Below are positions 17,387 to 64,000 of a stretch of 64,000 nucleotides of DNA, in pieces. The notes below the pieces were generated by a model. The model was not told the origin of the DNA, did not search any database, and worked only from the letters and a program-made list of their open reading frames with translations. Within the stretch, counting starts at the first letter, position 1. Every line of letters begins with the position of its first letter. Source of the stretch: Pristionchus mayeri (lineage: Eukaryota; Nematoda; Chromadorea; Rhabditida; Neodiplogasteridae); assembly GCA_036245805.1 (NCBI GenBank), contig BTRK01000001.1, positions 1,550,001 through 1,614,000 of the forward strand, in the 5' to 3' direction. The position numbers were made by a program, and so were the translations under genes.

Positions 17387-20300
17387 ATGAAGAAGTTGCA
17401 CTTTTTGTCAGTGACAATTGTAAACGATCAATCTTTAGCTATCTACCTGCGATCCGAATTCTACCAATTTGCCATTACCGGAGGTACGTATTTATCTTTT
17501 CCCCACGTCTCTTTTCGATTTTTTCTGTGTTGGTGAAGATGAGAGGAGCGTAAAGAGACACTATTAGTCACTAGGAACGTCTATTTATCGGCGATTCATA
17601 TCTTTCTGTTTTCCCATCTAAACACGTGTCAAATTTATGAAGATTATTTTCAAACTTTCTCACAAATGAAGTGAAAAATAAATTTCAGGGCGCGAGAATC
17701 TTGACGGAATCTATGTGAAAGACGCCTATCGTACCACTGATAACGAAATTCGATTTCTATATTTTAAAAATAGTGCATTTAGGTAAGCATATTACACGAT
17801 ACAATCATAAACAAAAAATTCAGATCACAATTGAAGTACTGGAACGGAGCCGAATTCACAGAGGTTCGAGAGCGGAGAGTCGATCCGATCATGCGTCTCT
17901 TCCTTCGGTGTCAGGTATACCAGACGAGAAATGGGGGTCGATAATCTTCTGATTAGAAGTCAGACACCTTATCCATTAGGTCACTTTCGAACCTTATAAT
18001 TATTCATTGGAACATTCCATTCAGATGGAAGCTCATATCGGCGTCGTACGCTACCAAAACGAGACTGATTCTGCATCCTCCCTGTGGCTCACGACTGGTG
18101 CTTCCAAAGAGAAGCATAGGATAAGAGTGCGGTAAGGTGTAGCTTGCCCATCCTACATAATGCAATCTCATTATGACAATATCAGGGACGTTCGGCCGCC
18201 GCCAAAATTCGATCCGGCTGAGTTCAAGTACCCCCATCGACTAGGAGTCTGCCTTCAGCCCATTTACTTCCATGCTGACTGGACTGTGTTTGTTCAGTAA
18301 GTTCATTACAAGAAGGAAAAATTACCATCATCAATGCAAAAGTAAATCTCATGTGCAAATGATATTCCCCCAGGGATTAGCATAAATTTGACTATCCAGA
18401 AACGATGTATCTTTACGAAGTTATAATTAATCCATTTCTGGGTTCTAGGTACTTTGAGTTCTGGCTCGCATCTGGTGCCACTAAATTCTACATCTACCTA
18501 CACTCGGCTTCTCGTCCTGTTCATGAGATACTCAACTTCTACAAGAAAAAATTGGGCTCAAATCTTGAGGTTTGCAGTGAAAATTTATTAAAAAATTTAA
18601 TTAAATGAACATACAAATCTGACTATAATAAATTATAAAAATCTACAGATAAATTAATTCTGTAGAAGGAATTATCGTTATTGCTGACTTATCCCTGTGA
18701 ATCCCATCCTTGCAGATCATACCATGGTCTGATCTACCCGTACAACAGAAAAATAAGGGCGACTTCCATCGAGACCCGAACTCGCGTCTCTTCAGAGTAG
18801 GCATCCACGCCGCTATAAACGACTGCCTGCTAAGGGCAAGGTTAGCTCTCCATAACTGCCTATAAAAACACAACATTGAATTACACATTTCTGTTAGGGA
18901 TTTTTTGGCGTTAAAATTTCTCAAGAACTAGAAATACATTTAGTTATATTTAAAACTTGATGATTTATAATGCTAATCAAAAAATTGCAAAAAGCGACCA
19001 AATTTTGCAATATCAAGTATCTACATTTAAAAACCAGGTATCAAGTCAAGTTCGTATCAATGCTTGATCTGGACGAGACTCTGCATGTACCCAATGGTGA
19101 GTGCCGATATGCGCATGGGGCTAATACTATTTCCTTCAGGGAACTCGATATTGAGTGAGTTGGAAGCGCTTGACAACGACTATCCACGCATGGGCACAGC
19201 TTCACTGCAGTGGATATACGCCGAACATGAAGTATTCTTTATCAGCATGGGCCACAGTATCCAAATTGCATTATATTGACTACATTGACAATTAATTACC
19301 AAATTTTATGCAATGGCCAAAAGGTATTCATATCCTATTCAGAATGAGAACCGTGATGCACGCTTCCCATACGAGATTCGCTTCAACTCCCTCGGAAACA
19401 TCAAGAAACCTATGGAAAACCAGGTAAGTGAATGTTGCCGTATATCACATATGCCTTGCATTTGCAGGTATTTTCTGTGTACACTGACTTCCGGAAGGTC
19501 ATCCAGCGGCCAGAGAGGGTGCAGATTGCTCACCAATTTCCAATTCATGCAGTGATTTTCCAGACTGTCCTCACTGATATTCACTCGACTCTAATCAATG
19601 AGTTACTGGACCCGGTGCTGTTCGACGTGCAGGATAAAAATGCAGTGGAAGCTGAAAGTGAGTTTGTCATCTGGGTTACGTATTCATCGTATTATGCATA
19701 AATCTTGCCCAATCATATTTCGTTCCCTGAAACCTAAATCCTTGTTCAGAGATGACCGATATTCCGCGGATATCTGGTGAGGGAAACCCGCTTTCATCTC
19801 CCTACAGATACTGGGAAGTACGGGTTCCAACGGCGAGGCTGAGCGTTGTTCATCTTCGGTATGTTTTAGCGTATCGACGACTCAGTGGTAGATTATCAAA
19901 CACATTATTAACTGCGTTTCGAGCTCTTCTGGAATTTATTATGCTTTTCTTTAGGATTATTCAGGAATTATCATATCAATTTCAGACGGTTCAACCCCGC
20001 CTTCCAAGGATCTGATCATGCCTATTCAAACAATACGCACGAATTCCGACCGTTTATTGAGAAAGCTCGGAATATGAACTTGAACTATGTCGCGCGGATT
20101 TCCAATGAGACGATTTGGGGTTAGTGAGAGCAGTGTGCACAGTTCCGCAACATTCAAAATATAAGTTCTGAGACGTGCATATTCGAATATGCTTATTCAA
20201 AAAATGTCAAATTATTGTCAGATTTTGACACCGGAGTGTGGCAAGCAATGATGAGCAATACTATTCGTACTCTGGAAGAGTGTCGATATTACCCCTTCAA

Positions 20301-41682: not shown

Positions 41683-43347
41683 ATGGAGGACCATATCACG
41701 CAAGCCAAGTGTAGGGCATACAAGGTACGCTGCATTCTTTATCTTCCAACCATTCAAAATGCACGCTCCCCTTTGCTAACATTCTCGGAATAATACTTTT
41801 AGCCCTTTATTATGGAAGTATGATCTTCGCGAATGCAATCGTGGTCAAGAGACGTAGATTTATCTGAACACATTAGGAATACGTTCTAAAATCTGTCTTC
41901 GCTCCGAAGCTCAAAAGCTATAATGTTCTTGTTGAACCACAAACGTTGATTGGGAATTGCTTGTATCTAGGTGGTCGCTGCCTCGGCCATCACCTTCTCG
42001 GTCGTTGCTGTCGTCGCCGTCTTCGTGACGCTCCCGATGGTGTACAACTACGTGCACTCCATCAAGCGATCCGTCAACAGAGACGTCGCCTTCTGCAAGG
42101 TGACAAAGGGCATAAATTATAGCGGATTTACTCTATGAACCCGACACCAGAATACCTATTCGTATATACATAATAGCGCATGATCTAGGAATATGCACTA
42201 TTCGGCGCAATACTATTGCTTTTTTATTCGAGGTAGTAGAAAGTGAAAGCTGGAAGCAAGCAAAACAAGGGCAATTAGATGGAAAGATATGGCGATAAAG
42301 CCACTTGAAAGCGAAAGCAGTAGGGCTGTGTCAAGTGAGGGGATTGTAGAGATACCAGTAATAAACCCTGAGGCGATAAGGAGTGAAAGCACATCATGGC
42401 CTACACCGGTTGTGAGTGCGCACACATACCGACACACAACCCTTAAGCCTCAATCAAGACTAAATGACAGGGTTCGGCCGAGCACATCTGGTCTGAGGTG
42501 AATGCCGTCAAGGAGCACCCTGCGCACAACAGAACCGCCCGTCAGGTACGTTATCTCTACGGAATAAAGCTGGCAAGTGTAAGCTACAGAACCCTACTTG
42601 CAGGCGTACGCTTCGGGAGGAGGCGGAGGAGCGGCAGTTGCCGGTGGAGGAGGTGGAGGAGGCGGAGGAGGAGACTGCTCCGGCTGCTGCATGCCCGGAC
42701 CCGCCGGACCTCCTGGAGCACCCGGAAAGCCAGGAAAGAACGGTATGATGACACTTTATTCGAACCAAATTTGATTTAATGTTAATTCAATATCACACTC
42801 AGGAATGCCCGGATCCCCTGGTATGCCCGGCATGCACGGTATGTCTGCTGGTGGTCCCTGCGAGCCGATGACTCCTCCTCCCTGCATGCCCTGCCCCGCT
42901 GGACCTCCTGGCCCCGCAGGACCTCCTGGACCTTCCGGAAACCCCGGAGGACCCGGTGCACCCGGACAGGGGGGAGGAGCTTCACCTCCCGGTCCTCCCG
43001 GACCTAAGGGACCTCCCGGACCTGCAGGAAACCCCGGACAGCCGGGAGGTATGGGCCCTCCTGGTCCAGCTGGAGAGGGAGGAGTTGGCGGTTCGGCCGC
43101 TCCCGGACCCGCTGGTCCCCCCGGACCTGCCGGTCCCCCCGGTCCCGATGGAGCCCCCGGATCTGGAGGAGTGGGACCTCCCGGACCCAAGGGACCCCCT
43201 GGACCCGCCGGAAATCCCGGATCCGATGGCAACCCTGGAGCGCCCGGATCATCTGGCAAGCCAGGAGGAGCTGGAGAGAAGGGAATTTGCCCCAAGTACT
43301 GTGCTATCGATGGAGGAGTCTTCTTCGAGGACGGAACCAGACGATAA
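41683..43347 (+). CDS. Cuticle collagen
   Basis: Nematode cuticle collagens are secreted by the hypodermis and cross-linked in the exoskeleton. The protein starts [14 protein letters not shown]; the next exon gives the Col_cuticle_N domain with its hydrophobic anchor ([20 protein letters not shown], then [15 protein letters not shown]). A subtilisin-type cleavage motif R-T-A-R lies in [10 protein letters not shown]. Then come a glycine-rich linker, CSGCC, a first Gly-X-Y block ([15 protein letters not shown]), an interruption with Cys residues ([12 protein letters not shown]), the main Gly-X-Y blocks with short breaks ([15 protein letters not shown]), and the C-terminal [19 protein letters not shown] typical of one large group of Caenorhabditis col genes. 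Five exons, the last 42803-43347. The paired Cys clusters flanking the triple helix would form inter-chain disulfides. Many close paralogues exist, so no symbol is given. Confidence 0.93.
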
Positions 43348-45248: not shown

Positions 45249-48200
45249 ATGGATTCTGAACGGGACGAACCTCCTCAGCTCCATCAAGTCGTTGCAACTG
45301 TCACCCCTTTCGATATCTACCGGTCAGCTTTGAAGGATTCTTCTGTTTCGTTTTGGTTTTCCACTATGAATGACGCTTGAAACAGGGTATATCACCGATA
45401 TCTTCCATGTTCAGATACCCCCGAATACACGATTCTCACTCCTCCTCGATCTCACCCGCGTACTCACTCACGTCCATTTCAACACCAGTCTACGATTCCA
45501 TTGCACGCGTCGATGATCGACCAGTCAGAAGGGTGCGCTCATATTAAATAACTATTCAAAGACGCTTCTCGTATAGCCGTTGTATTTTGTGTTCAACTGA
45601 AGATTAGTGATTTTATCTTCATAGATTGGATATATTATACATTCATTGCTACTATGGGTACTTTGAAATGCACTCAAATTAATAATATTTTTATCATTAC
45701 TAATTAAATATTTGGTTTCAGTCCTCTCCAGGCGTTAGACGTGAAGAGGGAACGCAGAGGGGTGGAAACCCGCACAGTGATCTTGATAACTACAATAATG
45801 TAAGATCCTATGACAAAAAAGCAATTTTATAACGACAATAATCCAAACTGGAATATTATAAAAATGTAAAGGAAATCGTCTAACCTTTATGTCGAAAGCT
45901 ATAAATCGAAAAAATAATCGAAAATACAAAGGAGACATCTGCATAATTGAAAAGTATCATTCAACATTTTTCTCCATTTCCTTCAGCGCAAGACTGCTGT
46001 AACTCTCTGGAGAATCTGCGCATTCCTTCTAATTCTTCTAATTGTTCTCATCTCAGTCGCAGTTGTCGTGGTATTGGTCATCTACTTACCACGTGAGCAT
46101 TTATATTAGTTATTTAGATTATCAGAATGAGAAATTTCAATATGGAGATCAAATTCTTTCACTATCTCTGTCCTATAAAGCACAAGCTCTACATTCAAAA
46201 TAAATCTTCATTTCCTACGACACTAAATGATGCTATTTTTTATAACTATTTTCTGCAAACCTATGGCTCGTATTGCTAAGACAGTTTGTCGACTGCCAGT
46301 CTTATTGCCAGTCTTTATGTCTCTCGTTTATCTGCACTCTATCTTGTCTCTAACTGAAGAGAGCTGCATTGACTCATGCATGAGGGCGGATTATAAAACA
46401 TCGTGTGCTGTGTGATTTGTTTGCCTCCATGATAGCAATTTTAAGAGTGTTTGTGCGTTTTCTATGCAGCATTTTAAGGCCCGCCGGAAATGAATAACCT
46501 GGCATAGCTTTACACATTAATCTGAACTTTTGATAAGAAAAAATCTAGAAATCGTGTTGTAAATATTCCGGAAACTCTTTTTTCTTGTTAGCATTATATG
46601 ATTACAATAATCCTTTCAAAAAATGCAGCAAAACTATTTGGAACAGAAAAAATTCGGGTCACGGTTTTCGTTGAAACCAGTAGCACAGTGAGCGGGAGAA
46701 CACCTATCTACTTCATTTCCCAAAATTTGCATGTTGAGCGGAGTTGACTTTACTTTGGAAGCCCATATCTCGATCAGTTTTGGAACTACAGAAATCGCAT
46801 TTATCCACCGATGCGTATTCTTCTGTATTCTTCTGATCTATAGATAAGTTCCCTTGCACTATGTGTAAAAATCATGTCTTCATACAATCATGGTAAAAAC
46901 TGGATTTTTCGATCTCAATAGGCTAATTACCAACCTTTTACAATGAAAACTATGCGATTTTGAAGCTTGATTTGGATTCCCCACTCTGCAATTGAATATA
47001 GATTATCTCTCATAACTCGATGAGTATCATTCGCTACTCACAAGGGGAGAATCATAACTTGGTGTAATTTTTGAATGATACATGTTTTCGTGCGTATCTC
47101 TCCTTCACCTTATGCAAATGACTGAGCCACTTTTGGATGCCTTTCGTATAAATCTCTAACAATGACTCAGGTGTACAAAACGCTGATTTGGCCGTTTTAG
47201 AGATAATTTCTGCACGTACCTAAGCGAACTTATTTGTAGATGAGAAGAATACGCATTGATGGAGATAATGCGATTCTCAAAAAAAACTGAGATATGGGTT
47301 TTCAAAATTGTAGGTCATAAATTCGCCTAGCATGTAAATTTGGAAAATGAAGTGGATAGGCGTTCTCCTCGCCCTTATTTTGGTTTTGTGATCAACATGA
47401 GATCGCGCGGCTCGTTAGGACAATGAATCCTCAGACTTGAAAGACACACGAAGCATGGATGTTTCCCGGGCTTTCGATTTATTCAAACATTTATTTTATT
47501 GGCCAGTGTGAGGGTTACTTAACGTCAGCATCGCATCGTTAAAGAGAGGGATTTCCTTTTGCGTTGCGTGTCTTTTTCGACTGCATTAACGAGCCGTGAT
47601 AGGAGACGAGTAGGTTCAACCTCCTCATGTCCCCTCCCGATTTCTATTATTATCCAACTATGCATGTTCCCGGGCCATAACTCGCGTTAACGATGAGGTA
47701 TCGAGAAACGGCAAAAAAGAAAGATCTTATTGCGACCCTGAGGGACCCATTGGAAAATCTAAATATCTCGTACGAACAAATCGGTCAAGAGCCTTGCGGT
47801 GTCTAACTACTGGTTTCAGTGAAAACCGTGACCCAATTTTTTTCTGTCGCATCGGTTCCTGCACGTTTTACAGAAGATCTGTGGTATTGTAATATTTCTT
47901 TGAATGTCACCTGAAATCTAATACAGATCATCAAAAAATTACATATATTTTAAGAAAAACCAAATCATCTCATCACTACCACCTCGTCACCTCTTCGTCA
48001 CTTCACTAAGCAGAATGTAACTGTTGCTGTGAATGTTGGAATGGCGACGACCGAAATGAAGAGGTCGAAGAGAGCTGCCGGGGAACTGAACAAGCAGGTG
48101 AACTGCTGAAAAAAAATTAAATATTGTTTTCCAGAATTCAGAATTATTTATCTAAATATTTTTGTTAGATTAAGTAAAGAATTGTAGATAATGGACGCCT

Positions 48201-51200
48201 TAATGAACTCAGTACAACAATGGACTGAGAGCGGCGACATAGGAGTCAGGTGACCAATAACAATAATTTAATGAATTGTATCGTCATATGTTTTCTTTCC
48301 ATCATGCAAGACTACAATTCACACCGAATTGCATCCTTGCTTAACAAGCAAAAAAGTAACTAATCAAAGATTCATCTGGTATTCCGACGCTCCGAAACAA
48401 TCCCTGCTGTTCGACACATGGCCTGACGCAATGAATAATATGGAAGAGAGTTATCATCCACGTACAGTCACAAATACGAATCAGACCTTGTAAGTCAGAA
48501 ACTAATATGAACATATTCTTCTATATTTAACATAATAATAAAACGTTTAATGATTTTTTCCATTCAATTGGTCAATGAGGATTGTCTTCGCAAAATTGGA
48601 ATAAACGTATGCATCAGTTTAGAATTGTTAATTTAAGAACTCTACAGAAGGTGAAAAATATAGTATTCCAAAATCTTCACATATTAGGTTGTAACATAAG
48701 TTTTGTCCGATTTCGTTAATGAAGTTTGAGCTAGCTCAAAATGGTCAACTCAAATCACATTGAGTTAACTCAATAACGTAAATAGGAGGAAGACTTGAAC
48801 ATTCCCTACATATGTTCAGATAAAATCAGCGACTCGGGATATGCGAGAAATTGATGATCGTCGTCGTACAAAATTTCAAAATATTTTTCTAAAATATTTT
48901 AATCGTCATTTTGCCAGGGAGAAAAAGTATGATACAACTTCACATACATTGGTGAGAAGGCCTTATCTTGTACTTTCTAAAACTACGTTGAATGGTAAGT
49001 GTGATCCTCCCCTTCCCGAATTACAAGATGGACAATGAGTAAGACGGACTTATGGAGCTGTTCAATCTATTAGTTTCCTTGCTCCGAAAGTCAACCTGGC
49101 AGTCCTTAGAATATGGGCAATAATATCTACTACTATTCTATCTACTACATACATTAGAAAAAGGTTAGCTGAACTGACCTTCATCTTTCTCAAAATTTTG
49201 ATTTTTCAAAAATATATTTTACTTGAGAAACATTCAAAATTCCGATTTTTTTGTGTCCAGGTTAGGGTGATTTTTCCAGCAAAAGTACATATCACCAAAC
49301 TTTCCCAAGCCACAAAGTATTAGGACAAGGGTAGCTTCAGCAAGTAATTACAAAATTACGAGATTGCCAAATGTATGCGAAACAGGAACTCGTAAAATAT
49401 GTCGATTTTAGTGTCGAATTTTGGACATCGATATTTGAATAATTCCGATTTGTGACAGGAGGATCGCACAATTACCAAACTAAAACTATGTGTTTATCAG
49501 GGTCAGATCTATACATTTTTCAATAAATTTATTCTCTAGGTTTAACGATGTTAATGCACGGTAGATAAATCCATCTCGGTTCATGCACAGTGGATCAAAA
49601 TTCGAAAATTGGTGCACTTTTCAAGTTGACCTTTCGTGTTAGAATTCATTTCAATTTGCTGCTGTGATACACGACCATGGAACTTTCCAAAAATATAATT
49701 TGATTAGCGCCATATATCGGACCGATAGATTACAACTCGGAGAAATAAGTAGCCCCGTTTTCAAATGCGGTGACTTTTTCCTCGCACCGCGACCAGAATC
49801 CCGATGTTTTAGATCTGTACAAATGTGCGCTAGACAGAGTGTTGGATCACTCATTGTGCCAGAACAACCATTTGAAAATCGGTCGAAAGGGAAGGATGTT
49901 CAATATCAGAAAACCAAATTATGAAAATCGGACAAAACTTTTGTTACAACCTGATACAAAAGTGCAATGAAATGCCCTCTTTCATTTGAAAACAAGAGAT
50001 TGAAGAGAAAGATACATGTGTGTCGTTACAGGGCCACACAAGCGCTGCAACTGACTGAAGACTCGGACTCACTGATGCTAGTTGTACCAGAATCTACTGC
50101 ATACTCGTAATAAATCTATATTATTTTCTATAAAAAAGTAGGATTCAACGGGAAAATATCCAAAAAAATCGTATAACGCAACTAATATAAAATATCGTAA
50201 ATGGTTTCTAAAATAAATAGGAGCAATGCGAGTGTGTGACATCTAATGCACTCTCCACTATTGGACGAAAAAAAGTTAATATAATAAGAGATATCTCACA
50301 TATTCCAATGGCATTGGATTTCAGGGAACAGGATGTCATGAAGAAAGATTCATTGGGCGCCGGAAATATTTTAAATATGATTGACAAAGAAAAGGTGAGA
50401 AAGACTAACATAAAACTTCTGAAATTTGTAGGCATTTTTAGGTGGCAATAAAATCAATCACTTAAAAATAATTTAAGGTGATAATTTTTGCTCCCAACAT
50501 GGAGCGATCGTCTGTAGAAAAGGCGTATAATCTTACTTCCACACCTCTGGTCATTACAAACCCCGACGATCTCACTGACTCCATTGGTGCGTTAAAAAAT
50601 TGTAAAGTAAATATAATCTTACAATTTAAAGGATTTCTTTCAGAACCCTTTCACACCACCTCCAGCACGACTGAAGGCACTCAATCCACTCTGGAGAATT
50701 CGATCACGACCACGGAAAGCAGCACAATCTCCGCTACTTCGGGATCCACTCCATCACCGTCGACCTCAACCGAAACGAGTGAAGGCACTTACTCAACGGA
50801 GGAGTCTTCGAGCACGACCACGGAAAGCAGCACCATCTCTGCTACTTCGGGATCCACTCCATCACCGTCGACCTCAACCGAAACGAGTGAAGGCACTTAC
50901 TCAACGGAGGAGTCTTCGAGCACGACCACGGAAAGCAGCACCATCTCTGCTACTTCGGGATCCACTCCATCACCGTCGACCTCAACCGAAACGAGTGAAG
51001 GCACTTACTCAACGGAGGAGTCTTCGAGCACGACCACGGAAAGCAGCACCATCTCTGCTACTTCGGGATCCACTCCATCACCGTCGACCTCAACCGAAAC
51101 GAGTGAAGGCACTTACTCAACGGAGGAGTCTTCGAGCACGACCACGGAAAGCAGCACCATCTCTGCTACTTCGGGATCCACTCCATCACCGTCGACCTCA

Positions 51201-54200
51201 ACCGAAACGAGTGAAGGAACTTACTCAACGGAGGAGTCTTCGAGCACGACCACGGAAAGCAGCACCATCTCTGCTTCTTCGGGATCCACTCCATCACCGT
51301 CGACCTCAACCGAAACGAGTGAAGGCACTTACTCGACGGAGGAGTCTTCGAGCACGACCACGGAAAGCAGCACCATCTCTGCTACTTCGGGATCCACTCC
51401 ATCACCGTCGACCTCAACCGAAACGAGTGAAGGCACTTACTCAACGGAGGAGTCTTCGAGCACGACCACGGAAAGCAGCACCATCTCTGCTACTTCGGGA
51501 TCCACTCCATCACCGTCGACCTCAACCGAAACGAGTGAAGGCACTTACTCAACGGAGGAGTCTTCGAGCACGACCACGGAAAGCAGCACCATCTCTGCTT
51601 CTTCGGGATCCACTCCATCACCGTCGACCTCAACCGAAACGAGTGAAGGAACTTACTCAACGAAGGAGTCTTCGAGCACGACCACGGAAAGCAGCACCAT
51701 CTCTGCTACTTCGGGATCCACTCCATCACCGTCGACCTCAACCGAAACGAGTGAAGGAACTTACTCAACGGAGGAGTCTTCGAGCACGACCACGGAAAGC
51801 AGCACCATCTCTGCTACTTCGGGATCCACTCCATCACCGTCGACCTCAACCGAAACGAGTGAAGGAACTTACTCAACGGAGGAGTCTTCGAGCACGACCA
51901 CGGAAAGCAGCACCATCTCTGCTACTTCGGGATCCACTCCATCACCGTCGACCTCAACCGAAACGAGTGAAGGAACTTACTCAACGGAGGAGTCTTCGAG
52001 CACGACCACGGAAAGCAGCACCATCTCTGCTTCTTCGGGATCCACTCCATCACCGTCGACCTCAACCGAAACGAGTGAAGGAACTTACTCAACGGAGGAG
52101 TCTTCGAGCACGACCACGGAAAGCAGCACCATCTCTGCTACTTCGGGATCCACTCCATCACCGTCGACCTCAACCGAAACGAGTGAAGGAACTTACTCAA
52201 CGGAGGAGTCTTCGAGCACGACCACGGAAAGCAGCACCATCTCTGCTTCTTCGGGATCCACTCCATCACCGTCGACCTCAACCGAAACGAGTGAAGGCAC
52301 TTACTCAACGGAGGAGTCTTCGAGCACGACCACGGAAAGCAGCACCATCTCTGCTACTTCGGGATCCACTCCATCACCGTCGACCTCAACCGAAACGAGT
52401 GAAGGCACTTACTCAACGGAGGAGTCTTCGAGCACGACCACGGAAAGCAGCACCATCTCTGCTACTTCGGGATCCACTCCATCACCGTCGACCTCAACCG
52501 AAACGAGTGAAGGCACTTACTCAACGGAGGAGTCTTCGAGCACGACCACGGAAAGCAGCACCATCTCTGCTACTTCGGGATCCACTCCATCACCGTCGAC
52601 CTCAACCGAAACGAGTGAAGGCACTTACTCAACGGAGGAGTCTTCGAGCACGACCACGGAAAGCAGCACCATCTCTGCTACTTCGGGATCCACTCCATCA
52701 CCGTCGACCTCAACCGAAACAAGTGAAGGAACTTACTCAACGGAGGAGTCTTCGAGCACGACCACGGAAAGCAGCACCATCTCTGCTACTTCGGGATCCA
52801 CTCCATCACCGTCGACCTCAACCGAAACGAGTGAAGGCACTTACTCAACGGAGGAGTCTTCGAGCACGACCACGGAAAGCAGCACCATCTCTTCTACTTC
52901 GGGATCCACTCCATCACCGTCGCCCTCAACCGAAACGAGTGAAGGCACTTACTCAACGGAGGAGTCTTCGAGCACGACCACGGAAAGCAGCACCATCTCT
53001 GCTACTTCGGGATCCACTCCATCACCGTCGACCTCAACCGAAACGAGTGAAGGAACTTACTCAACGGAGGAGTCTTCGAGCACGACCACGGAAAGCAGCA
53101 CCATCTCTTCTACTTCGGGATCCACTCCATCACCGTCGCCCTCAACCGAAACGAGTGAAGGCACTTACTCAACGGAGGAGTCTTCGAGCACGACCACGGA
53201 AAGCAGCACCATCTCTGCTACTTCGGGATCCACTCCATCACCGTCGACCTCAACCGAAACGAGTGAAGGAACTTACTCAACGGAGGAGTCTTCGAGCACG
53301 ACCACGGAAAGCAGCACCATCTCTGCTTCTTCGGGATCCACTCCATCACCGTCGACCTCAACCGAAACGAGTGAAGGCACTTACTCGACGGAGGAGTCTT
53401 CGAGCACGACCACGGAAAGCAGCACCATCTCTGCTACTTCGGGATCCACTCCATCACCGTCGACCTCAACCGAAACGAGTGAAGGCACTTACTCAACGGA
53501 GGAGTCTTCGAGCACGACCACGGAAAGCAGCACCATCTCTGCTACTTCGGGATCCACTCCATCACCGTCGACCTCAACCGAAACGAGTGAAGGCACTTAC
53601 TCAACGGAGGAGTCTTCGAGCACGACCACGGAAAGCAGCACCATCTCTGCTACTTCGGGATCCACTCCATCACCGTCGACCTCAACCGAAACGAGTGAAG
53701 GAACTTACTCAACGGAGGAGTCTTCGAGCACGACCACGGAAAGCAGCACCATCTCTGCTTCTTCGGGATCCACTCCATCACCGTCGACCTCAACCGAAAC
53801 GAGTGAAGGCACTTACTCAACGGAGGAGTCTTCGAGCACGACCACGGAAAGCAGCACCATCTCTGCTACTTCGGGATCCACTCCATCACCGTCGACCTCA
53901 TCCGAAACGAGTGAAGGCACTTACTTAACGGAGGAGTCTTCGAGCACGACCACGGAAAGCAGCACCATCTCTGCTACTTCGGGATCCACTCCATCACCGT
54001 CGACCTCAACCGAAACGAGTGAAGGAACTTACTCAACGGAGGAGTCTTCGAGCACGACCACGGAAAGCAGCACCATCTCTGCTTCTTCGGGATCCACTCC
54101 ATCACCGTCGACCTCAACCGAAACGAGTGAAGGCACTTACTCAACGGAGGAGTCTTCGAGCACGACCACGGAAAGCAGCACCATCTCTGCTACTTCGGGA

Positions 54201-57200
54201 TCCACTCCATCACCGTCGACCTCAACCGAAACGAGTGAAGGCACTTACTCAACGGAGGAGTCTTCGAGCACGACCACGGAAAGCAGCACCATCTCTGCTA
54301 CTTCGGGATCCACTCCATCACCGTCGACCTCAACCGAAACGAGTGAAGGAACTTACTCAACGGAGGAGTCTTCGAGCACGACCACGGAAAGCAGCACCAT
54401 CTCTGCTTCTTCGGGATCCACTCCATCACCGTCGACCTCAACCGAAACGAGTGAAGGCACTTACTCGACGGAGGAGTCTTCGAGCACGACCACGGAAAGC
54501 AGCACCATCTCTGCTACTTCGGGATCCACTCCATCACCGTCGACCTCAACCGAAACGAGTGAAGGCACTTACTCAACGGAGGAGTCTTCGAGCACGACCA
54601 CGGAAAGCAGCACCATCTCTTCTACTTCGGGATCCACTCCATCACCGTCGACCTCAACCGAAACGAGTGAAGGCACTTACTCAACGGAGGAGTCTTCGAG
54701 CACGACCACGGAAAGCAGCACCATCTCTGCTACTTCGGGATCCACTCCATCACCGTCGACCTCAACCGAAACGAGTGAAGGAACTTACTCAACGGAGGAG
54801 TCTTCGAGCACGACCACGGAAAGCAGCACCATCTCTGCTTCTTCGGGATCCACTCCATCACCGTCGACCTCAACCGAAACGAGTGAAGGCACTTACTCAA
54901 CGGAGGAGTCTTCGAGCACGACCACGGAAAGCAGCACCATCTCTGCTACTTCGGGATCCACTCCATCACCGTCGACCTCATCCGAAACGAGTGAAGGCAC
55001 TTACTTAACGGAGGAGTCTTCGAGCACGACCACGGAAAGCAGCACCATCTCTGCTACTTCGGGATCCACTCCATCACCGTCGACCTCAACCGAAACGAGT
55101 GAAGGAACTTACTCAACGGAGGAGTCTTCGAGCACGACCACGGAAAGCAGCACCATCTCTGCTTCTTCGGGATCCACTCCATCACCGTCGACCTCAACCG
55201 AAACGAGTGAAGGCACTTACTCAACGGAGGAGTCTTCGAGCACGACCACGGAAAGCAGCACCATCTCTGCTACTTCGGGATCCACTCCATCACCGTCGAC
55301 CTCAACCGAAACGAGTGAAGGCACTTACTCAACGGAGGAGTCTTCGAGCACGACCACGGAAAGCAGCACCATCTCTGCTACTTCGGGATCCACTCCATCA
55401 CCGTCGACCTCAACCGAAACGAGTGAAGGAACTTACTCAACGGAGGAGTCTTCGAGCACGACCACGGAAAGCAGCACCATCTCTGCTTCTTCGGGATCCA
55501 CTCCATCACCGTCGACCTCAACCGAAACGAGTGAAGGCACTTACTCGACGGAGGAGTCTTCGAGCACGACCACGGAAAGCAGCACCATCTCTGCTACTTC
55601 GGGATCCACTCCATCACCGTCGACCTCAACCGAAACGAGTGAAGGCACTTACTCAACGGAGGAGTCTTCGAGCACGACCACGGAAAGCAGCACCATCTCT
55701 TCTACTTCGGGATCCACTCCATCACCGTCGCCCTCAACCGAAACGAGTGAAGGCACTTACTCAACGGAGGAGTCTTCGAGCACGACCACGGAAAGCAGCA
55801 CCATCTCTGCTACTTCGGGATCCACTCCATCACCGTCGACCTCAACCGAAACGAGTGAAGGAACTTACTCAACGGAGGAGTCTTCGAGCACGACCACGGA
55901 AAGCAGCACCATCTCTGCTTCTTCGGGATCCACTCCATCACCGTCGACCTCAACCGAAACGAGTGAAGGCACTTACTCGACGGAGGAGTCTTCGAGCACG
56001 ACCACGGAAAGCAGCACCATCTCTGCTACTTCGGGATCCACTCCATCACCGTCGACCTCAACCGAAACGAGTGAAGGCACTTACTCAACGGAGGAGTCTT
56101 CGAGCACGACCACGGAAAGCAGCACCATCTCTGCTACTTCGGGATCCACTCCATCACCGTCGACCTCAACCGAAACGAGTGAAGGCACTTACTCAACGGA
56201 GGAGTCTTCGAGCACGACCACGGAAAGCAGCACCATCTCTGCTACTTCGGGATCCACTCCATCACCGTCGACCTCAACCGAAACGAGTGAAGGAACTTAC
56301 TCAACGGAGGAGTCTTCGAGCACGACCACGGAAAGCAGCACCATCTCTGCTTCTTCGGGATCCACTCCATCACCGTCGACCTCAACCGAAACGAGTGAAG
56401 GCACTTACTCAACGGAGGAGTCTTCGAGCACGACCACGGAAAGCAGCACCATCTCTGCTACTTCGGGATCCACTCCATCACCGTCGACCTCATCCGAAAC
56501 GAGTGAAGGCACTTACTCAACGGAGGAGTCTTCGAGCACGACCACGGAAAGCAGCACCATCTCTGCTACTTCGGGATCCACTCCATCACCGTCGACCTCA
56601 ACCGAAACGAGTGAAGGCACTTACTCAACGGAGGAGTCTTCGAGCACGACCACGGAAAGCAGCACCATCTCTGCTACTTCGGGATCCACTCCATCACCGT
56701 CGACCTCAACCGAAACGAGTGAAGGAACTTACTCAACGGAGGAGTCTTCGAGCACGACCACGGAAAGCAGCACCATCTCTGCCACTTCGGGATCCACTCC
56801 ATCACCGTCGACCTCAACCGAAACGAGTGAAGGCACTTACTCAACGGAGGAGCCTTCGAGCACGACCACGGAAAGCAGCACCATCTCTTCTACTTCGGGA
56901 TCCACTCCATCACCGTCGCCCTCAACCGAAACGAGTGAAGGCACTTACTCAACGGAGGAGTCTTCGAGCACGACCACGGAAAGCAGCACCATCTCTGCTA
57001 CTTCGGGATCCACTCCATCACCGTCGACCTCAACCGAAACGAGTGAAGGAACTTACTCAACGGAGGAGTCTTCGAGCACGACCACGGAAAGCAGCACCAT
57101 CTCTGCTACTTCGGGATCCACTCCATCACCGTCGACCTCAACCGAAACGAGTGAAGGCACTTACTCAACGGAGGAGTCTTCGAGCACGACCACGGAAAGC

Positions 57201-60200
57201 AGCACCATCTCTGCTACTTCGGGATCCACTCCATCACCGTCGACCTCAACCGAAACGAGTGAAGGAACTTACTCAACGGAGGAGTCTTCGAGCACGACCA
57301 CGGAAAGCAGCACCATCTCTGCCACTTCGGGATCCACTCCATCACCGTCGACCTCAACCGAAACGAGTGAAGGCACTTACTCAACGGAGGAGTCTTCGAG
57401 CACGACCACGGAAAGCAGCACCATCTCTTCTACTTCGGGATCCACTCCATCACCGTCGCCCTCAACCGAAACGAGTGAAGGCACTTACTCAACGGAGGAG
57501 TCTTCGAGCACGACCACGGAAAGCAGCACCATCTCTGCTACTTCGGGATCCACTCCATCACCGTCGACCTCAACCGAAACGAGTGAAGGAACTTACTCAA
57601 CGGAGGAGTCTTCGAGCACGACCACGGAAAGCAGCACCATCTCTGCTTCTTCGGGATCCACTCCATCACCGTCGACCTCAACCGAAACGAGTGAAGGCAC
57701 TTACTCGACGGAGGAGTCTTCGAGCACGACCACGGAAAGCAGCACCATCTCTGCTACTTCGGGATCCACTCCATCACCGTCGACCTCAACCGAAACGAGT
57801 GAAGGAACTTACTCAACGGAGGAGTCTTCGAGCACGACCACGGAAAGCAGCACCATCTCTGCTACTTCGGGTTCCACTCCATCACCGTCGACCTCAACCG
57901 AAACGAGTGAAGGCACTTACTCAACGGAGGAGTCTTCGAGCACGACCACGGAAAGCAGCACCATCTCTGCTACTTCGGGATCCACTCCATCACCGTCGAC
58001 CTCAACCGAAACGAGTGAAGGAACTTACTCAACGGAGGAGTCTTCGAGCACGACCACGGAAAGCAGCACCATCTCTGCTTCTTCGGGATCCACTCCATCA
58101 CCGTCGACCTCAACCGAAACGAGTGAAGGCACTTACTCAACCGAGGAGTCTTCGAGCATGACCACGGAAAGCAGCACCATCTCTGCTACTTCGGGATCCA
58201 CTCCATCACCGTCGACCTCAACCGAAACGAGTGAAGGCACTTACTCAACGGAGGAGTCTTCGAGCACGACCACGGAAAGCAGCACCATCTCTGCTACTTC
58301 GGGATCCACTCCATCACCGTCGACCTCAACCGAAACGAGTGAAGGAACTTACTCAACGGAGGAGTCTTCGAGCACGACCACGGAAAGCAGCACCATCTCT
58401 GCTACTTCGGGATCCACTCCATCACCGTCGACCTCAACCGAAACGAGTGAAGGCACTTACTCAACGGAGGAGTCTTCGAGCACGACCACGGAAAGCAGCA
58501 CCATCTCTGCTTCTTCGGGATCCACTCCATCACCGTCGACCCCAACCGAAACGAGTGAAGGCACTTACTCGACGGAGGAGTCTTCAAGCACGACCACGGA
58601 AAGCAGCACCATCTCTGCTTCTTCGGGATCCACTCCATCACCGTCGACCTCAACCGAAACGAGTGAAGGCACTTACTCAACGGAGGAGTCTTCGAGCACG
58701 ACCACGGAAAGCAGCACCATCTCTGCTACTTCGGGATCCACTCCATCACCGTCGACCTCAACCGAAACGAGTGAAGGCACTTACTCAACGGAGGAGTCTT
58801 CGAGCACGACCACGGAAAGCAGCACCATCTCTGCTACTTCGGGATCCACTCCATCACCGTCGACCTCAACCGAAACGAGTGAAGGAACTTACTCAACGGA
58901 GGAGTCTTCGAGCACGACCACGGAAAGCAGCACCATCTCTGCCACTTCGGGATCCACTCCATCACCGTCGACCTCAACCGAAACGAGTGAAGGCACTTAC
59001 TCAACGGAGGAGTCTTCGAGCACGACCACGGAAAGCAGCACCATCTCTGCCACTTCGGGATCCACTCCATCACCGTCGACCTCATCCGAAACGAGTGAAG
59101 GCACTTACTCAACGGAGGAGTCTTCGAGCACGACCACGGAAAGCAGCACCATCTCTGCTACTTCGGGATCCACTCCATCACCGTCGACCTCAACCGAAAC
59201 GAGTGAAGGCACTTACTCAACGGAGGAGTCTTCGAGCACGACCACGGAAAGCAGCACCATCTCTGCTACTTCGGGATCCACTCCATCACCGTCGACCTCA
59301 ACCGAAACGAGTGAAGGAACTTACTCAACGGAGGAGTCTTCGAGCACGACCACGGAAAGCAGCACCATCTCTGCTACTTCGGGATCCACTCCATCACCGT
59401 CGACCTCAACCGAAACGAGTGAAGGCACTTACTCAACGGAAGAGTCTTCGAGCACGACCACGGAAAGCAGCACCATCTCTGCTACTTCGGGATCCACTCC
59501 ATCACCGTCGACCTCAACCGAAACGAGTGAAGGCACTTACTCAACGGAGGAGTCTTCGAGCACGACCACGGAAAGCAGCCCCATCTCTGCTACTTCGGGA
59601 TCCACTCCATCACCGTCGACCTCAACCGAAACGAGTGAAGGCACTTACTCAACGGAGGAGTCTTCGAGCACGACCACGGAAAGCAGCACCATCTCTGCTA
59701 CTTCGGGATCCACTCCATCACCGTGGACCTCAACCGAAACGAGTGAAGGCACTTACTCAACGGAGGAGTCTTCGAGCACGACCACGGAAAGCAGCACCAT
59801 CTCTGCTACTTCGGGATCCACTCCATCACCGTCGACCTCAACCGAAACGAGTGAAGGAACTTACTCAACGGAGGAGTCTTCGAGCACGACCACGGAAAGC
59901 AGCACCATCTCTGCTACTTCGGGATCCACTCCATCACCGTCGACCTCAACCGAAACGAGTGAAGGCACTTACTCAACGGAGGAGTCTTCGAGCACGACCA
60001 CGGAAAGCAGCACCATCTCTGCTTCTTCGGGATCCACTCCATCACCGTCGACCTCAACCGAAACGAGTGAAGGCACTTACTCAACCGAGGAGTCTTCGAG
60101 CATGACCACGGAAAGCAGCACCATCTCTGCTACTTCGGGATCCACTCCATCACCGTCGACCTCAACCGAAACGAGTGAAGGCACTTACTCAACGGAGGAG

Positions 60201-63200
60201 CCTTCGAGCACGACCACGGAAAGCAGCACCATCTCTTCTACTTCGGGATCCACTCCATCACCGTCGCCCTCAACCGAAACGAGTGAAGGCACTTACTCAA
60301 CGGAGGAGTCTTCGAGCACGACCACGGAAAGCAGCACCATCTCTGCTACTTCGGGATCCACTCCATCACCGTCGACCTCAACCGAAACGAGTGAAGGAAC
60401 TTACTCAACGGAGGAGTCTTCGAGCACGACCACGGAAAGCAGCACCATCTCTGCTACTTCGGGATCCACTCCATCACCGTCGACCTCAACCGAAACGAGT
60501 GAAGGCACTTACTCAACGGAGGAGTCTTCGAGCACGACCACGGAAAGCAGCACCATCTCTGCTTCTTCGGGATCCACTCCATCACCGTCGACCTCAACCG
60601 AAACGAGTGAAGGCACTTACTCAACCGAGGAGTCTTCGAGCATGACCACGGAAAGCAGCACCATCTCTGCTACTTCGGGATCCACTCCATCACCGTCGAC
60701 CTCAACCGAAACGAGTGAAGGCACTTACTCAACGGAGGAGTCTTCGAGCACGACCACGGAAAGCAGCACCATCTCTGCTACTTCGGGATCCACTCCATCA
60801 CCGTCGACCTCAACCGAAACGAGTGAAGGAACTTACTCAACGGAGGAGTCTTCGAGCACGACCACGGAAAGCAGCACCATCTCTGCTACTTCGGGATCCA
60901 CTCCATCACCGTCGACCTCAACCGAAACGAGTGAAGGCACTTACTCAACGGAGGAGTCTTCGAGCACGACCACGGAAAGCAGCACCATCTCTGCTTCTTC
61001 GGGATCCACTCCATCACCGTCGACCCCAACCGAAACGAGTGAAGGCACTTACTCGACGGAGGAGTCTTCAAGCACGACCACGGAAAGCAGCACCATCTCT
61101 GCTTCTTCGGGATCCACTCCATCACCGTCGACCTCAACCGAAACGAGTGAAGGCACTTACTCAACGGAGGAGTCTTCGAGCACGACCACGGAAAGCAGCA
61201 CCATCTCTGCTACTTCGGGATCCACTCCATCACCGTCGACCCCAACCGAAACGAGTGAAGGCACTTACTCGACGGAGGAGTCTTCAAGCACGACCACGGA
61301 AAGCAGCACCATCTCTGCTTCTTCGGGATCCACTCCATCACCGTCGACCTCAACCGAAACGAGTGAAGGCACTTACTCAACGGAGGAGTCTTCGAGCACG
61401 ACCACGGAAAGCAGCACCATCTCTGCTACTTCGGGATCCACTCCATCACCGTCGACCTCAACCGAAACGAGTGAAGGAACTTACTCAACGGAGGAGTCTT
61501 CGAGCACGACCACGGAAAGCAGCACCATCTCTGCTACTTCGGGATCCACTCCATCACCGTCGACCTCAACCGAAACGAGTGAAGGCACTTACTCAACGGA
61601 GGAGTCTTCGAGCACGACCACGGAAAGCAGCACCATCTCTGCTTCTTCGGGATCCACTCCATCACCGTCGACCTCAACCGAAACGAGTGAAGGCACTTAC
61701 TCAACCGAGGAGTCTTCGAGCATGACCACGGAAAGCAGCACCATCTCTGCTACTTCGGGATCCACTCCATCACCGTCGACCTCAACCGAAACGAGTGAAG
61801 GCACTTACTCAACGGAGGAGTCTTCGAGCACGACCACGGAAAGCAGCACCATCTCTGCTACTTCGGGATCCACTCCATCACCGTCGACCTCAACCGAAAC
61901 GAGTGAAGGAACTTACTCAACGGAGGAGTCTTCGAGCACGACCACGGAAAGCAGCACCATCTCTGCTACTTCGGGATCCACTCCATCACCGTCGACCTCA
62001 ACCGAAACGAGTGAAGGCACTTACTCAACGGAGGAGTCTTCGAGCACGACCACGGAAAGCAGCACCATCTCTGCTTCTTCGGGATCCACTCCATCACCGT
62101 CGACCCCAACCGAAACGAGTGAAGGCACTTACTCGACGGAGGAGTCTTCAAGCACGACCACGGAAAGCAGCACCATCTCTGCTTCTTCGGGATCCACTCC
62201 ATCACCGTCGACCTCAACCGAAACGAGTGAAGGCACTTACTCAACGGAGGAGTCTTCGAGCACGACCACGGAAAGCAGCACCATCTCTGCTACTTCGGGA
62301 TCCACTCCATCACCGTCGACCCCAACCGAAACGAGTGAAGGCACTTACTCGACGGAGGAGTCTTCAAGCACGACCACGGAAAGCAGCACCATCTCTGCTT
62401 CTTCGGGATCCACTCCATCACCGTCGACCTCAACCGAAACGAGTGAAGGCACTTACTCAACGGAGGAGTCTTCGAGCACGACCACGGAAAGCAGCACCAT
62501 CTCTGCTACTTCGGGATCCACTCCATCACCGTCGACCTCAACCGAAACGAGTGAAGGCACTTACTCAACGGAGGAGTCTTCGAGCACGACCACGGAAAGC
62601 AGCACCATCTCTGCTACTTCGGGATCCACTCCATCACCGTCGACCTCAACCGAAACGAGTGAAGGAACTTACTCAACGGAGGAGTCTTCGAGCACGACCA
62701 CGGAAAGCAGCACCATCTCTGCCACTTCGGGATCCACTCCATCACCGCCGACCTCAACCGAAACGAGTGAAGGCACTTACTCAACGGAGGAGTCTTCGAG
62801 CACGACCACGGAAAGCAGCACCATCTCTGCCACTTCGGGATCCACTCCATCACCGTCGACCTCAACCGAAACGAGTGAAGGCACTTACTCAACGGAGGAG
62901 TCTTCGAGCACGACAACGGAAAGCAGCACCATCTCTGCTACTTCGGGATCCACTCCATCACCGTCGACCTCAACCGAAACGAGTGAAGGCACTTACTCAA
63001 CGGAAGAGTCTTCGAGCACGACCACGGAAAGCAGCACCATCTCTGCTACTTCGGGATCCACTCCATCACCGTCGACCTCAACCGAAACGAGTGAAGGCAC
63101 TTACTCAACGGAGGAGTCTTCGAGCACGACCACGGAAAGCAGCCCCATCTCTGCTACTTCGGGATCCACTCCATCACCGTCGACCTCAACCGAAACGAGT

Positions 63201-64000
63201 GAAGGCACTTACTCAACGGAGGAGTCTTCGAGCACGACCACGGAAAGCAGCACCATCTCTGCTACTTCGGGATCCACTCCATCACCGTGGACCTCAACCG
63301 AAACGAGTGAAGGCACTTACTCAACGGAGGAGTCTTCGAGCACGACCACGGAAAGCAGCACCATCTCTGCTACTTCGGGATCCACTCCATCACCGTCGAC
63401 CTCAACCGAAACGAGTGAAGGAACTTACTCAACGGAGGAGTCTTCGAGCACGACCACGGAAAGCAGCACCATCTCTGCTACTTCGGGATCCACTCCATCA
63501 CCGTCGACCTCAACCGAAACGAGTGAAGGCACTTACTCAACGGAGGAGTCTTCGAGCACGACCACGGAAAGCAGCACCATCTCTGCTACTTCGGGATCCA
63601 CTCCATCACCGTCGACCTCAACCGAAACGAGTGAAGGCACTTACTCAACGGAGGAGTCTTCGAGCACGACCACGGAAAGCAGCACCATCTCTGCTACTTC
63701 GGGATCCACTCCATCACCGTGGACCTCAACCGAAACGAGTGAAGGCACTTACTCAACGGAGGAGTCTTCGAGCACGACCACGGAAAGCAGCACCATCTCT
63801 GCTACTTCGGGATCCACTCCATCACCGTCGACCTCAACCGAAACGAGTGAAGGCACTTACTCAACGGAGGAGTCTTCAAGCACGACCACGGAAAGCAGCA
63901 CCATCTCTGCTACTTCGGGATCCACTCCATCACCGTCGACCTCAACCGAAACGAGTGAAGGCACTTACTCGACGGAGGAGTCTTCAAGCACGACCACGGA
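45249..64000 (+). CDS. Giant type II membrane, VWA-like, mucin-repeat protein; 3' end outside window
   Basis: Start ATG 45249 (MDSERDEPPQLHQVVATVTP). Exons to about 45780 give some 90 hydrophilic residues (RREEGTQRGGNPHSD) ending in a basic RKTAVTLWR; the exon at 45988 then gives a hydrophobic helix (AFLLILLIVLISVAVVVVL), so the N-terminus should be cytoplasmic (type II). After a 1.9-kb intron come exons that join in phase: 48014-48099 (NVTVAVNVGMATTEMKRSKR), a 48190 exon ending GDIGVR, then FIWYSDAPKQSLLFDTW, 50037-50109, 50325-50395 and 50478-50586 (VIIFAPNMERSSVEKAYNLT). Alternating hydrophobic strands and helices look like a von Willebrand A fold without the metal-binding DxSxS. From 50643 one exon is open to the window end, dominated by the 36-residue Ser/Thr repeat. 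At least one linker exon after the membrane helix is missing from my model. Probable heavily O-glycosylated surface or cuticle-facing mucin; function unknown. Confidence 0.75.
46644..47846. mobile_element. Fold-back-like DNA element in the mucin-gene intron
   Basis: Outer inverted repeats of about 38 bp: cagaaaaaattcgggtcacg onward at 46644-46683 against its reverse complement at 47807-47846, few mismatches. Inside, a longer imperfect inverted repeat pairs about 46695-46840 with about 47245-47395 (agaacacctatctacttcat against gtggataggcgttct and so on). The 3' side carries about 400 unmatched bases (47395-47806), possibly a nested insertion or element body. No transposase was recognised. Confidence 0.7.
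48686..49952. mobile_element. 1.27-kb element with 28-bp inverted ends
   Basis: AGGTTGTAACATAAGTTTTG onward at the left matches the reverse complement of the right end over 28 bp with one difference. Length and end size resemble mariner/Tc1 elements, but no transposase motif was found and the target duplication is unclear. It lies inside the intron between the FDTW exon and the 50037 exon. Confidence 0.72.
50673..64000 (+). repeat. Coding minisatellite: >123 tandem units of 108 bp (36 residues)
   Basis: Unit starts fall at 50673 + 108n. Comparing lines 540 bp apart (5 units) shows the same register at 50761 and 63721, so there is no net insertion or deletion over 120 units. Consensus peptide in two parts: EGTYSTEESSSTTTESSTIS then ATSGSTPSPSTSTETS; 13 Ser, 11 Thr, 5 Glu, 2 Pro, no Cys, Lys or Arg. 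Unit 1 is divergent (STLENSITTTESS), as expected at an array edge. Variants are few and recurrent: GGC/GGA, TCA/TCG, GCT ACT/GCT TCT/TCT ACT/GCC ACT, ACC/CCC, TCA/CCA and rare TTA, ATG, TGG. The array runs off the window. Confidence 0.98.

What the first reader, a model, noticed from the sequence alone, without database searches (positions are those of the whole stretch)
50673..64000. Giant near-identical Ser/Thr-rich coding array running off the window
More than 123 copies of a 36-residue unit, two-thirds Ser/Thr with acidic residues and no Lys/Arg/Cys, encode at least 4,400 residues in one exon. This points to a very long, heavily O-glycosylated mucin-like stalk. Copies differ by only a few recurring substitutions, so the array is young or strongly homogenised and its length probably varies between individuals.
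Basis: seen in the sequence. Interest (0 to 1): 0.9.

Follow-up and report, generated by a model that had tools for sequence, protein, structure and literature searches.

The report
Giant nematode membrane-anchored mucin gene
The repeat is real: it is the first of three Ser/Thr arrays in one predicted roundworm gene for a 14,136-residue membrane-anchored mucin, punctuated by three copies of an unrecognised folded unit that each carry a furin-type cutting site, so it may be an extremely long surface-coat molecule of a new build.

Summary
Past the window edge, array 1 runs to 166.8 copies of 108 bp. It is one of three arrays in a single predicted 26-exon nematode gene (window coordinates 45,249 to 96,050) for 14,136 residues (1.42 MDa, pI 4.05, 63% Ser+Thr, 2 Cys). 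My model reads: cytoplasmic tail, one transmembrane helix (type II), globular unit A, array 1, unit B, array 2, unit C, array 3, stop. The three ~180-residue units share exon lengths and phases, stay 53-56% identical (A against B, C) though synonymous sites are saturated, and gave no significant match in Pfam, NCBIfam, PDB or three length-limited protein searches. R-x-[K/R]-R occurs three times, once per unit at the same place. Best reading: a membrane-tethered giant mucin precursor, cut at each unit by a furin-type convertase, supplying an extracellular coat. Whether cut pieces stay joined is open. A related array of about 200 near-identical exons lies on another chromosome. No transcript, glycan, read or population evidence was available: expression, true copy number and polymorphism are untested.

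The parts
45249..45799 (+). Exons 1-3 (45249-45322, 45415-45532, 45722-45799): start Met and hydrophilic N-terminal (cytoplasmic) tail
   Evidence: gene model; in-frame TAA two codons upstream of the ATG and a TTTTTCACAG acceptor-like site about 30 nt upstream (sequence, my reading); single-copy exons, so the least supported part of the model
45987..46092 (+). Exon 4: transmembrane helix (19-residue windows starting at residues 92-111), type II orientation
   Evidence: the only hydropathy windows above 1.6 in 14,136 residues
47955..48097 (+). Globular unit A, first exon: conserved strand HFTKQNVTVAVNVGMAT and furin-type site KRSKR|A
48188..48249 (+). Unit A exon (62 bp)
   Evidence: same length and phase in units B and C
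48370..48489 (+). Unit A exon (120 bp)
   Evidence: same length and phase in B and C
50032..50106 (+). Unit A exon (75 bp)
   Evidence: same length and phase in B and C
50325..50394 (+). Unit A exon (70 bp)
   Evidence: same length and phase in B and C
50478..50586 (+). Unit A last exon (109 bp): VIIFAPNMERSSVEKAYNLTSTPLVITNPDDLTDSI
   Evidence: same length and phase in B and C
50644..64000 (+). Array exon 1 (whole exon 50644-68870, 18,227 bp, runs past the window): 166.8 copies of the 108-bp unit (50667-68676), then the start of unit B with furin-type site KRRKR|D. Further parts lie beyond the window at C1: unit B exons to 1,620,492, array exon 2 1,620,540-1,629,454, unit C to 1,631,877, array exon 3 1,631,925-1,645,091, tail exons to stop at 1,646,050

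Best explanation
A single nematode gene encodes a giant type II membrane-anchored mucin precursor. Shown by sequence: three Ser/Thr arrays (166.8 x 36 aa; 34.2 x 42 aa followed by 39.9 x 36 aa; 103.5 x 42 aa) alternate in one open, spliceable frame with three homologous globular units. Each unit is under protein-level constraint and has one furin-type site in an otherwise variable loop. Inferred: the protein enters the secretory pathway through its signal-anchor, the arrays are densely O-glycosylated into extended rods (order of 3 micrometres if fully extended; my estimate from a recalled ~0.25 nm per residue), and a BLI-4/furin-like convertase cuts each unit, giving a short membrane stub and pieces of 6,221, 3,117 and 4,633 residues for the glycocalyx or surface coat of an epithelium or cuticle. 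With 2 Cys in the whole protein, disulfide polymerisation of the gel-forming kind is not expected; pieces would act as single rods or be held non-covalently. Array length evolves by unequal exchange of multi-unit blocks.
For: One open model of 26 exons, 23 GT-AG and 2 GC-AG introns. Units A, B, C share exon lengths 62/120/75/70/109 and phases. B-C dN 0.069, dS 0.263; A-B synonymous sites saturated (107 of 120) with dN 0.34. Exactly 3 R-x-[K/R]-R motifs in 14,136 aa, all at the same place in the units; in that loop only the K/R residues are invariant. One TM segment. 13 N-glycosylation sequons, 9 of them 3 per unit at the same places. Arrays: TRF indels 0% in the four main repeat blocks and 0 true stops among 177 distinct variants where about 5.4 stops were expected. 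Repeated multi-unit blocks at a spacing of 10 units. C. elegans cuticle collagens show the same topology plus potential furin sites (PMC11304992, passages).
Against: No RNA, peptide or glycan data. Exons 1-4 are hand-modelled and single-copy. Openness of the arrays alone is weak evidence: the antisense of array 3 is also open for 4,374 aa and that of array 2 for 1,177 aa. Array variants show little amino-acid constraint (111 nonsynonymous, 65 synonymous; expected 119 and 52). Cleavage is predicted from a motif only. No homologue was found in three protein searches, so conservation beyond this genome is unshown.
Confidence: 0.62

Rival explanations
1. A branch of the best explanation: the cut units release three free secreted mucin chains, as may be the case for nematode cuticle collagens; the membrane anchor is only a targeting device and the globular pieces do not stay together.
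For: Type II topology plus potential furin site is the arrangement reported for about two thirds of C. elegans cuticle collagens (PMC11304992 passages); no C-terminal hydrophobic segment.
Against: The short strand left on the N side of each cut is among the most conserved segments (15 of 19 against 81 of 153 after the cut, A-B; two overlapping windows near the C-terminus also reach 15 of 19), which suggests it belongs to the folded unit rather than being a spent propeptide end.
Confidence: 0.4
2. The units are not cut; the basic loop is structural and the molecule is an intact tethered stalk of 14,000 residues.
For: Only a motif supports cleavage.
Against: Basic residues are the only invariant positions of an otherwise variable loop across units with saturated synonymous divergence; no other such motif in 14,136 residues.
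Confidence: 0.2
3. The array is largely an assembly or satellite artefact and the real exon is much shorter.
For: Near-identical tandem units are hard to assemble; read evidence is not available here.
Against: Non-repeat coding sequence bounds array 1 and the other arrays; no N in the 124 kb joined from the window; block-wise variant pattern rather than random copies; frame kept through three separate arrays.
Confidence: 0.08
4. The arrays are untranslated or pseudogenic repeat DNA next to a small gene.
For: Little amino-acid constraint within arrays.
Against: Units B and C are read through in the same exons as the arrays (the unit start sits in the array exon) and evolve with omega 0.26.
Confidence: 0.05

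Closest known systems
Transmembrane mucins with repeated SEA modules (MUC16 type; features recalled, no call)
   Same: Giant Ser/Thr tandem-repeat ectodomain, membrane anchor, repeated cleavable modules
   Different: Type II not type I; no SEA match in Pfam scans of the units and no G-S-V-V-V-like motif; furin-type site instead of self-cleavage; modules alternate with arrays along the whole length
Nematode cuticle collagens of type II topology (PMC11304992, passages)
   Same: N-terminal signal-anchor and furin-type site outside the membrane
   Different: No collagen match in the scanned parts; mucin arrays; three sites, two of them far from the N-terminus
C. elegans mucin-like genes (mucl-1, -2, -6, -9, -10, -11, dpy-6, let-653 in the table of PMC10761439; plg-1 in PMC11304992; passages)
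   Same: Ser/Thr-rich nematode extracellular proteins; surface-coat mucins are suspected but unidentified
Tandem-repeat mucin exons found among extrachromosomal circles in C. elegans and human cells (PMC5633380, passages)
   Same: Coding tandem repeats of mucins that recombine
   Different: No circle data for this locus

Membership tests
Mucin-type glycoprotein | Long Ser/Thr(/Pro)-rich tandem repeats | tested here: met
   S+T 64-67% in all arrays, Pro 5-8%
Mucin-type glycoprotein | Dense O-glycosylation | not testable with these tools
   needs biochemistry
Transmembrane (SEA) mucin | Membrane anchor | tested here: met
   single hydrophobic segment, windows starting at residues 92-111; prediction only
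Transmembrane (SEA) mucin | SEA domain / GSVVV self-cleavage | tested here: not met
   no SEA match in Pfam scans of the three units (HMMER filters drop most matches above E 0.1), motif absent from the whole protein
Gel-forming mucin | vWD / cystine-knot domains and many Cys | tested here: not met
   2 Cys in 14,136 residues; the three units and the first 324 residues scanned without such a match
von Willebrand A domain (for the globular unit) | Sequence/profile match to VWA | tested here: inconclusive
   Pfam: no VWA match; PF00092 over the genome, exon by exon: 10 matches, none here; profile-profile score 17.2, exceeded by 2 of 60 column shuffles, though the aligned strands are collinear
von Willebrand A domain (for the globular unit) | MIDAS D-x-S-x-S after strand 1 | tested here: not met
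   N-x-G-x-A at that place in all three units (my reading of the alignment); a D-x-T-x-S in unit A lies at its C-terminal end instead
Furin-processed protein | R-x-[K/R]-R site outside the membrane | tested here: met
   3 of 3 units, nowhere else
Furin-processed protein | Actual cleavage | not testable with these tools
   needs biochemistry

The most novel reading that the evidence does not exclude
Each globular unit is cut inside its own fold, just after a buried first strand, by a furin-type convertase, and the two halves stay together by strand insertion. The mature molecule would then be a nearly Cys-free, non-covalent, head-to-tail chain of micrometre-scale mucin rods on a membrane stub: a MUC16/SEA-like breakable joint evolved independently on a different, so far unrecognised domain.
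Probability: 0.2. Interest if true: 0.85.

Novelty: new variant of a known kind. Interest (0 to 1): 0.62.

Why it matters
A 2024 review says that mucins are believed to be a major component of the nematode surface coat but that the specific ones are unknown (PMC11304992, passage). This gene is a concrete candidate with an architecture I could not match to any family searched. If the furin-cut units hold together it would be a new kind of breakable joint in tethered mucins; either way two giant, fast-evolving Ser/Thr arrays on two chromosomes make array-length variation in a predicted surface glycoprotein directly measurable by long reads.

Tried and rejected
Homologue searches: N-terminal 345 residues in a 654-residue query (626 candidates, none at E<=0.001), array-end exon (1 candidate, none), unit B in a 1,500-residue query (970 candidates, none at E<=10). 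Each sees only proteins of 0.55-1.75 times the query's length, and whether that database holds nematode proteins was not calibrated, so these nulls are weak. PDB profile search: 3 chance-level matches, best E 0.3. NCBIfam: one match at E 0.073, far below its cut-off. VWA membership: collinear by eye but not significant. SEA and gel-forming mucin: rejected. Species: not identified; a paper search on genome size gave 0 papers. Paper searches for a described counterpart (one search gave 0 papers) showed none with this architecture in the listed titles and abstract starts; that is no proof of absence. Paralogue of unit B: 15 matches at E<=0.1, all in this locus.

Full report
Observation. The tandem array is as described: 108-bp period, 123.5 copies in the window, 98% match and no indels, with one frame open to the window end. 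Among the 122 full copies in the window after the first, 21 of 108 columns vary. The first copy is diverged (96 of 108 identical to the consensus); the 165 that follow, to the end of the array beyond the window, differ from the consensus at 0-3 positions each. The unit has 24 Ser/Thr of 36.

Context. The window is C1:1,550,001-1,614,000 of a 290.8 Mb, 73-contig assembly. Downstream sequence shows that array 1 ends at window coordinate 68,676, and that two further arrays follow: array 2 (34.2 x 126 bp, then 39.9 x 108 bp, 70,657-79,260) and array 3 (103.5 x 126 bp, 82,041-95,080). Each lies in a single open exon, of 18,227, 8,915 and 13,167 bp.

Gene model. Before array 1 and between the arrays are three copies of a globular unit split over exons. 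A search of the whole genome with unit B gave 15 matches at E<=0.1, all in this locus. Hand modelling gives 26 exons, 23 GT-AG and 2 GC-AG introns, a stop at 96,050 and 14,136 residues: mass 1.419 MDa, pI 4.05, Ser 31.7%, Thr 31.2%, Cys at two positions only. The units have identical internal exon lengths (62, 120, 75, 70, 109) and phases. This, with B-C dN 0.069 against dS 0.263 and A-B synonymous saturation at dN 0.34, is the strongest evidence that the model is a real coding gene. Introns of B and C are 62-92% identical where aligned, and blastn aligns three pieces of the B and C regions at 94, 86 and 78%, so B and C look like products of a duplication of an array-end/unit/array-start module. 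The N-terminal exons 1-4 are single-copy and rest on phase, splice sites and a hydrophobic helix; the ATG follows an in-frame TAA (sequence).

Topology and processing. The only hydropathy windows above threshold start at residues 92-111; there is no second segment, so the protein is predicted type II with about 90 residues inside and about 14,000 outside. R-x-[K/R]-R occurs three times in the protein, ending at residues 165, 6,386 and 9,503, at the same place in each unit. Between columns 20 and 29 of the unit alignment only the basic residues are invariant. The first 19 columns are 15/19 identical between A and B, those after the cut 81/153; two windows near the C-terminus are equally conserved. 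So the pre-cut strand looks like part of the fold. Cutting at all three would give pieces of 165, 6,221, 3,117 and 4,633 residues. Sequons N-V-T, N-Q-T and N-L-T are in all three units.

What the unit is. No significant match in Pfam (chance-level matches only, E 0.03-0.12), NCBIfam, PDB or the protein database. Its order of strands and helices as I read it, and the C-terminal stretch VEKAYNLTSxxxVITxxDxLxDSI, recall a VWA domain to me, but the MIDAS motif is absent after strand 1, PF00092 does not find the locus among 10 genome matches (exon by exon), and the profile comparison (score 17.2) is beaten by 2 of 60 column-shuffled controls. I leave the fold open.

Array evolution. Distinct substitutions over the four repeat blocks: 111 nonsynonymous and 65 synonymous, against 119 and 52 expected with transitions weighted 2; the single formal stop is one of two changes in a TAC-to-CAA codon, so true stops are 0 against 5.4 expected. 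Constraint is thus on openness and composition more than on exact residues. In array 1 the unit strings repeat in blocks: 11 units recur at a spacing of 10, and lag 10 has 26% identical pairs against 14% overall, as unequal exchange would give. The 108-bp consensus of array 1 and of the second part of array 2 differ at 1 of 108 positions although units A and B are saturated at synonymous sites, so repeat units have spread or been homogenised recently. C. elegans and human mucin exons are among the sources of circular DNA (PMC5633380, passages), a plausible route.

A second locus. The 126-bp unit of array 3 also matches C6 between 21,587,643 and 21,659,699, minus strand, at 84-88% in the matches listed (273 matches in all, list cut, lower bound). 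There about 79 kb hold 208 exon slots by my pattern, 203 open and in phase 1 and 5 not, 117 of them exactly 126 bp; 194 of 225 donor sites are followed by 110-112-bp introns. 126-bp exons are 97.6% and 111-bp introns 97.4% identical to their consensus. The open slots sum to 48,156 nt, about 16,050 residues. In the 130 kb fetched, tblastn with units A and B and the N-terminus gave nothing better than E 1.1. The gene seems to end in Cys-rich, thrombospondin-1-like exons scoring below Pfam's cut-off (one query approximate). Exons 24 and 25 of the C1 gene are also 126 bp, phase 1, and share 78 and 93 of 126 bases with the C6 exon consensus. So one ancestral exon seems to have expanded with its intron on C6 and without it on C1 (inference).

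Mechanism and verdict. Best supported: a membrane-anchored giant mucin precursor for an extracellular coat, processed at each unit. Shown: gene anatomy, composition, unit constraint, site conservation between units. Inferred: glycosylation, cleavage, location, function. The combination (type II anchor, nearly Cys-free, three unrecognised units with a cutting site, 14,000 residues) differs from every family tested, but mucins as a kind are well known; hence new variant of a known kind.

Noticed in passing
L036-L044 (within C6:21,560,001-21,690,000, minus strand), array about C6:21,580,000-21,659,300: Second giant mucin-like locus: 203 of 208 exon slots open and in phase, Ser/Thr-rich (117 of exactly 126 bp) with near-identical ~111-bp introns, about 16,050 residues; Cys-rich TSP1-like exons at the 3' side.
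   Followed up: partly
L047 (C3:23,754,634-23,754,972 region, minus strand): A VWA match inside an open frame of 6,220 aa with repeats such as GPDGQPLPTDSNGNYIQPAV; a third giant exon, unrelated in composition; only about 3.3 kb of it was read.
   Followed up: partly
window 13128-13829 (+): Transposase_1 match (PF01359), E 4.1e-25; mariner-type is my recollection.
   Followed up: no
window 42775-43344 (+): Collagen exon next to the mucin gene, PF01391 E 1.9e-12.
   Followed up: no
window 17865-17990 (-): Rfam tRNA match just above cut-off (32.2 against 29 bits), not found by ARAGORN.
   Followed up: no
window 14625-14668 and 16247-16289: Two short arrays whose units look like inverted copies of one another (GGTTCTCATCCGGTG / GTCGGATGAGAACC), perhaps ends of a mobile element.
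   Followed up: no
L012:1240-1310 (intron 23 of the gene): tRNA-like stretch with a GGTTCGATTCC box; possibly a tRNA-derived SINE (my reading).
   Followed up: no
L045, about C6:21,673,300-21,679,920: ORF of 1,579 aa with matching flanking stretches, LTR-element-like.
   Followed up: no
C1 exons 15 and 21 (window coordinates 70267-70336, 81652-81721): GC-AG donors in units B and C where unit A has GT.
   Followed up: no
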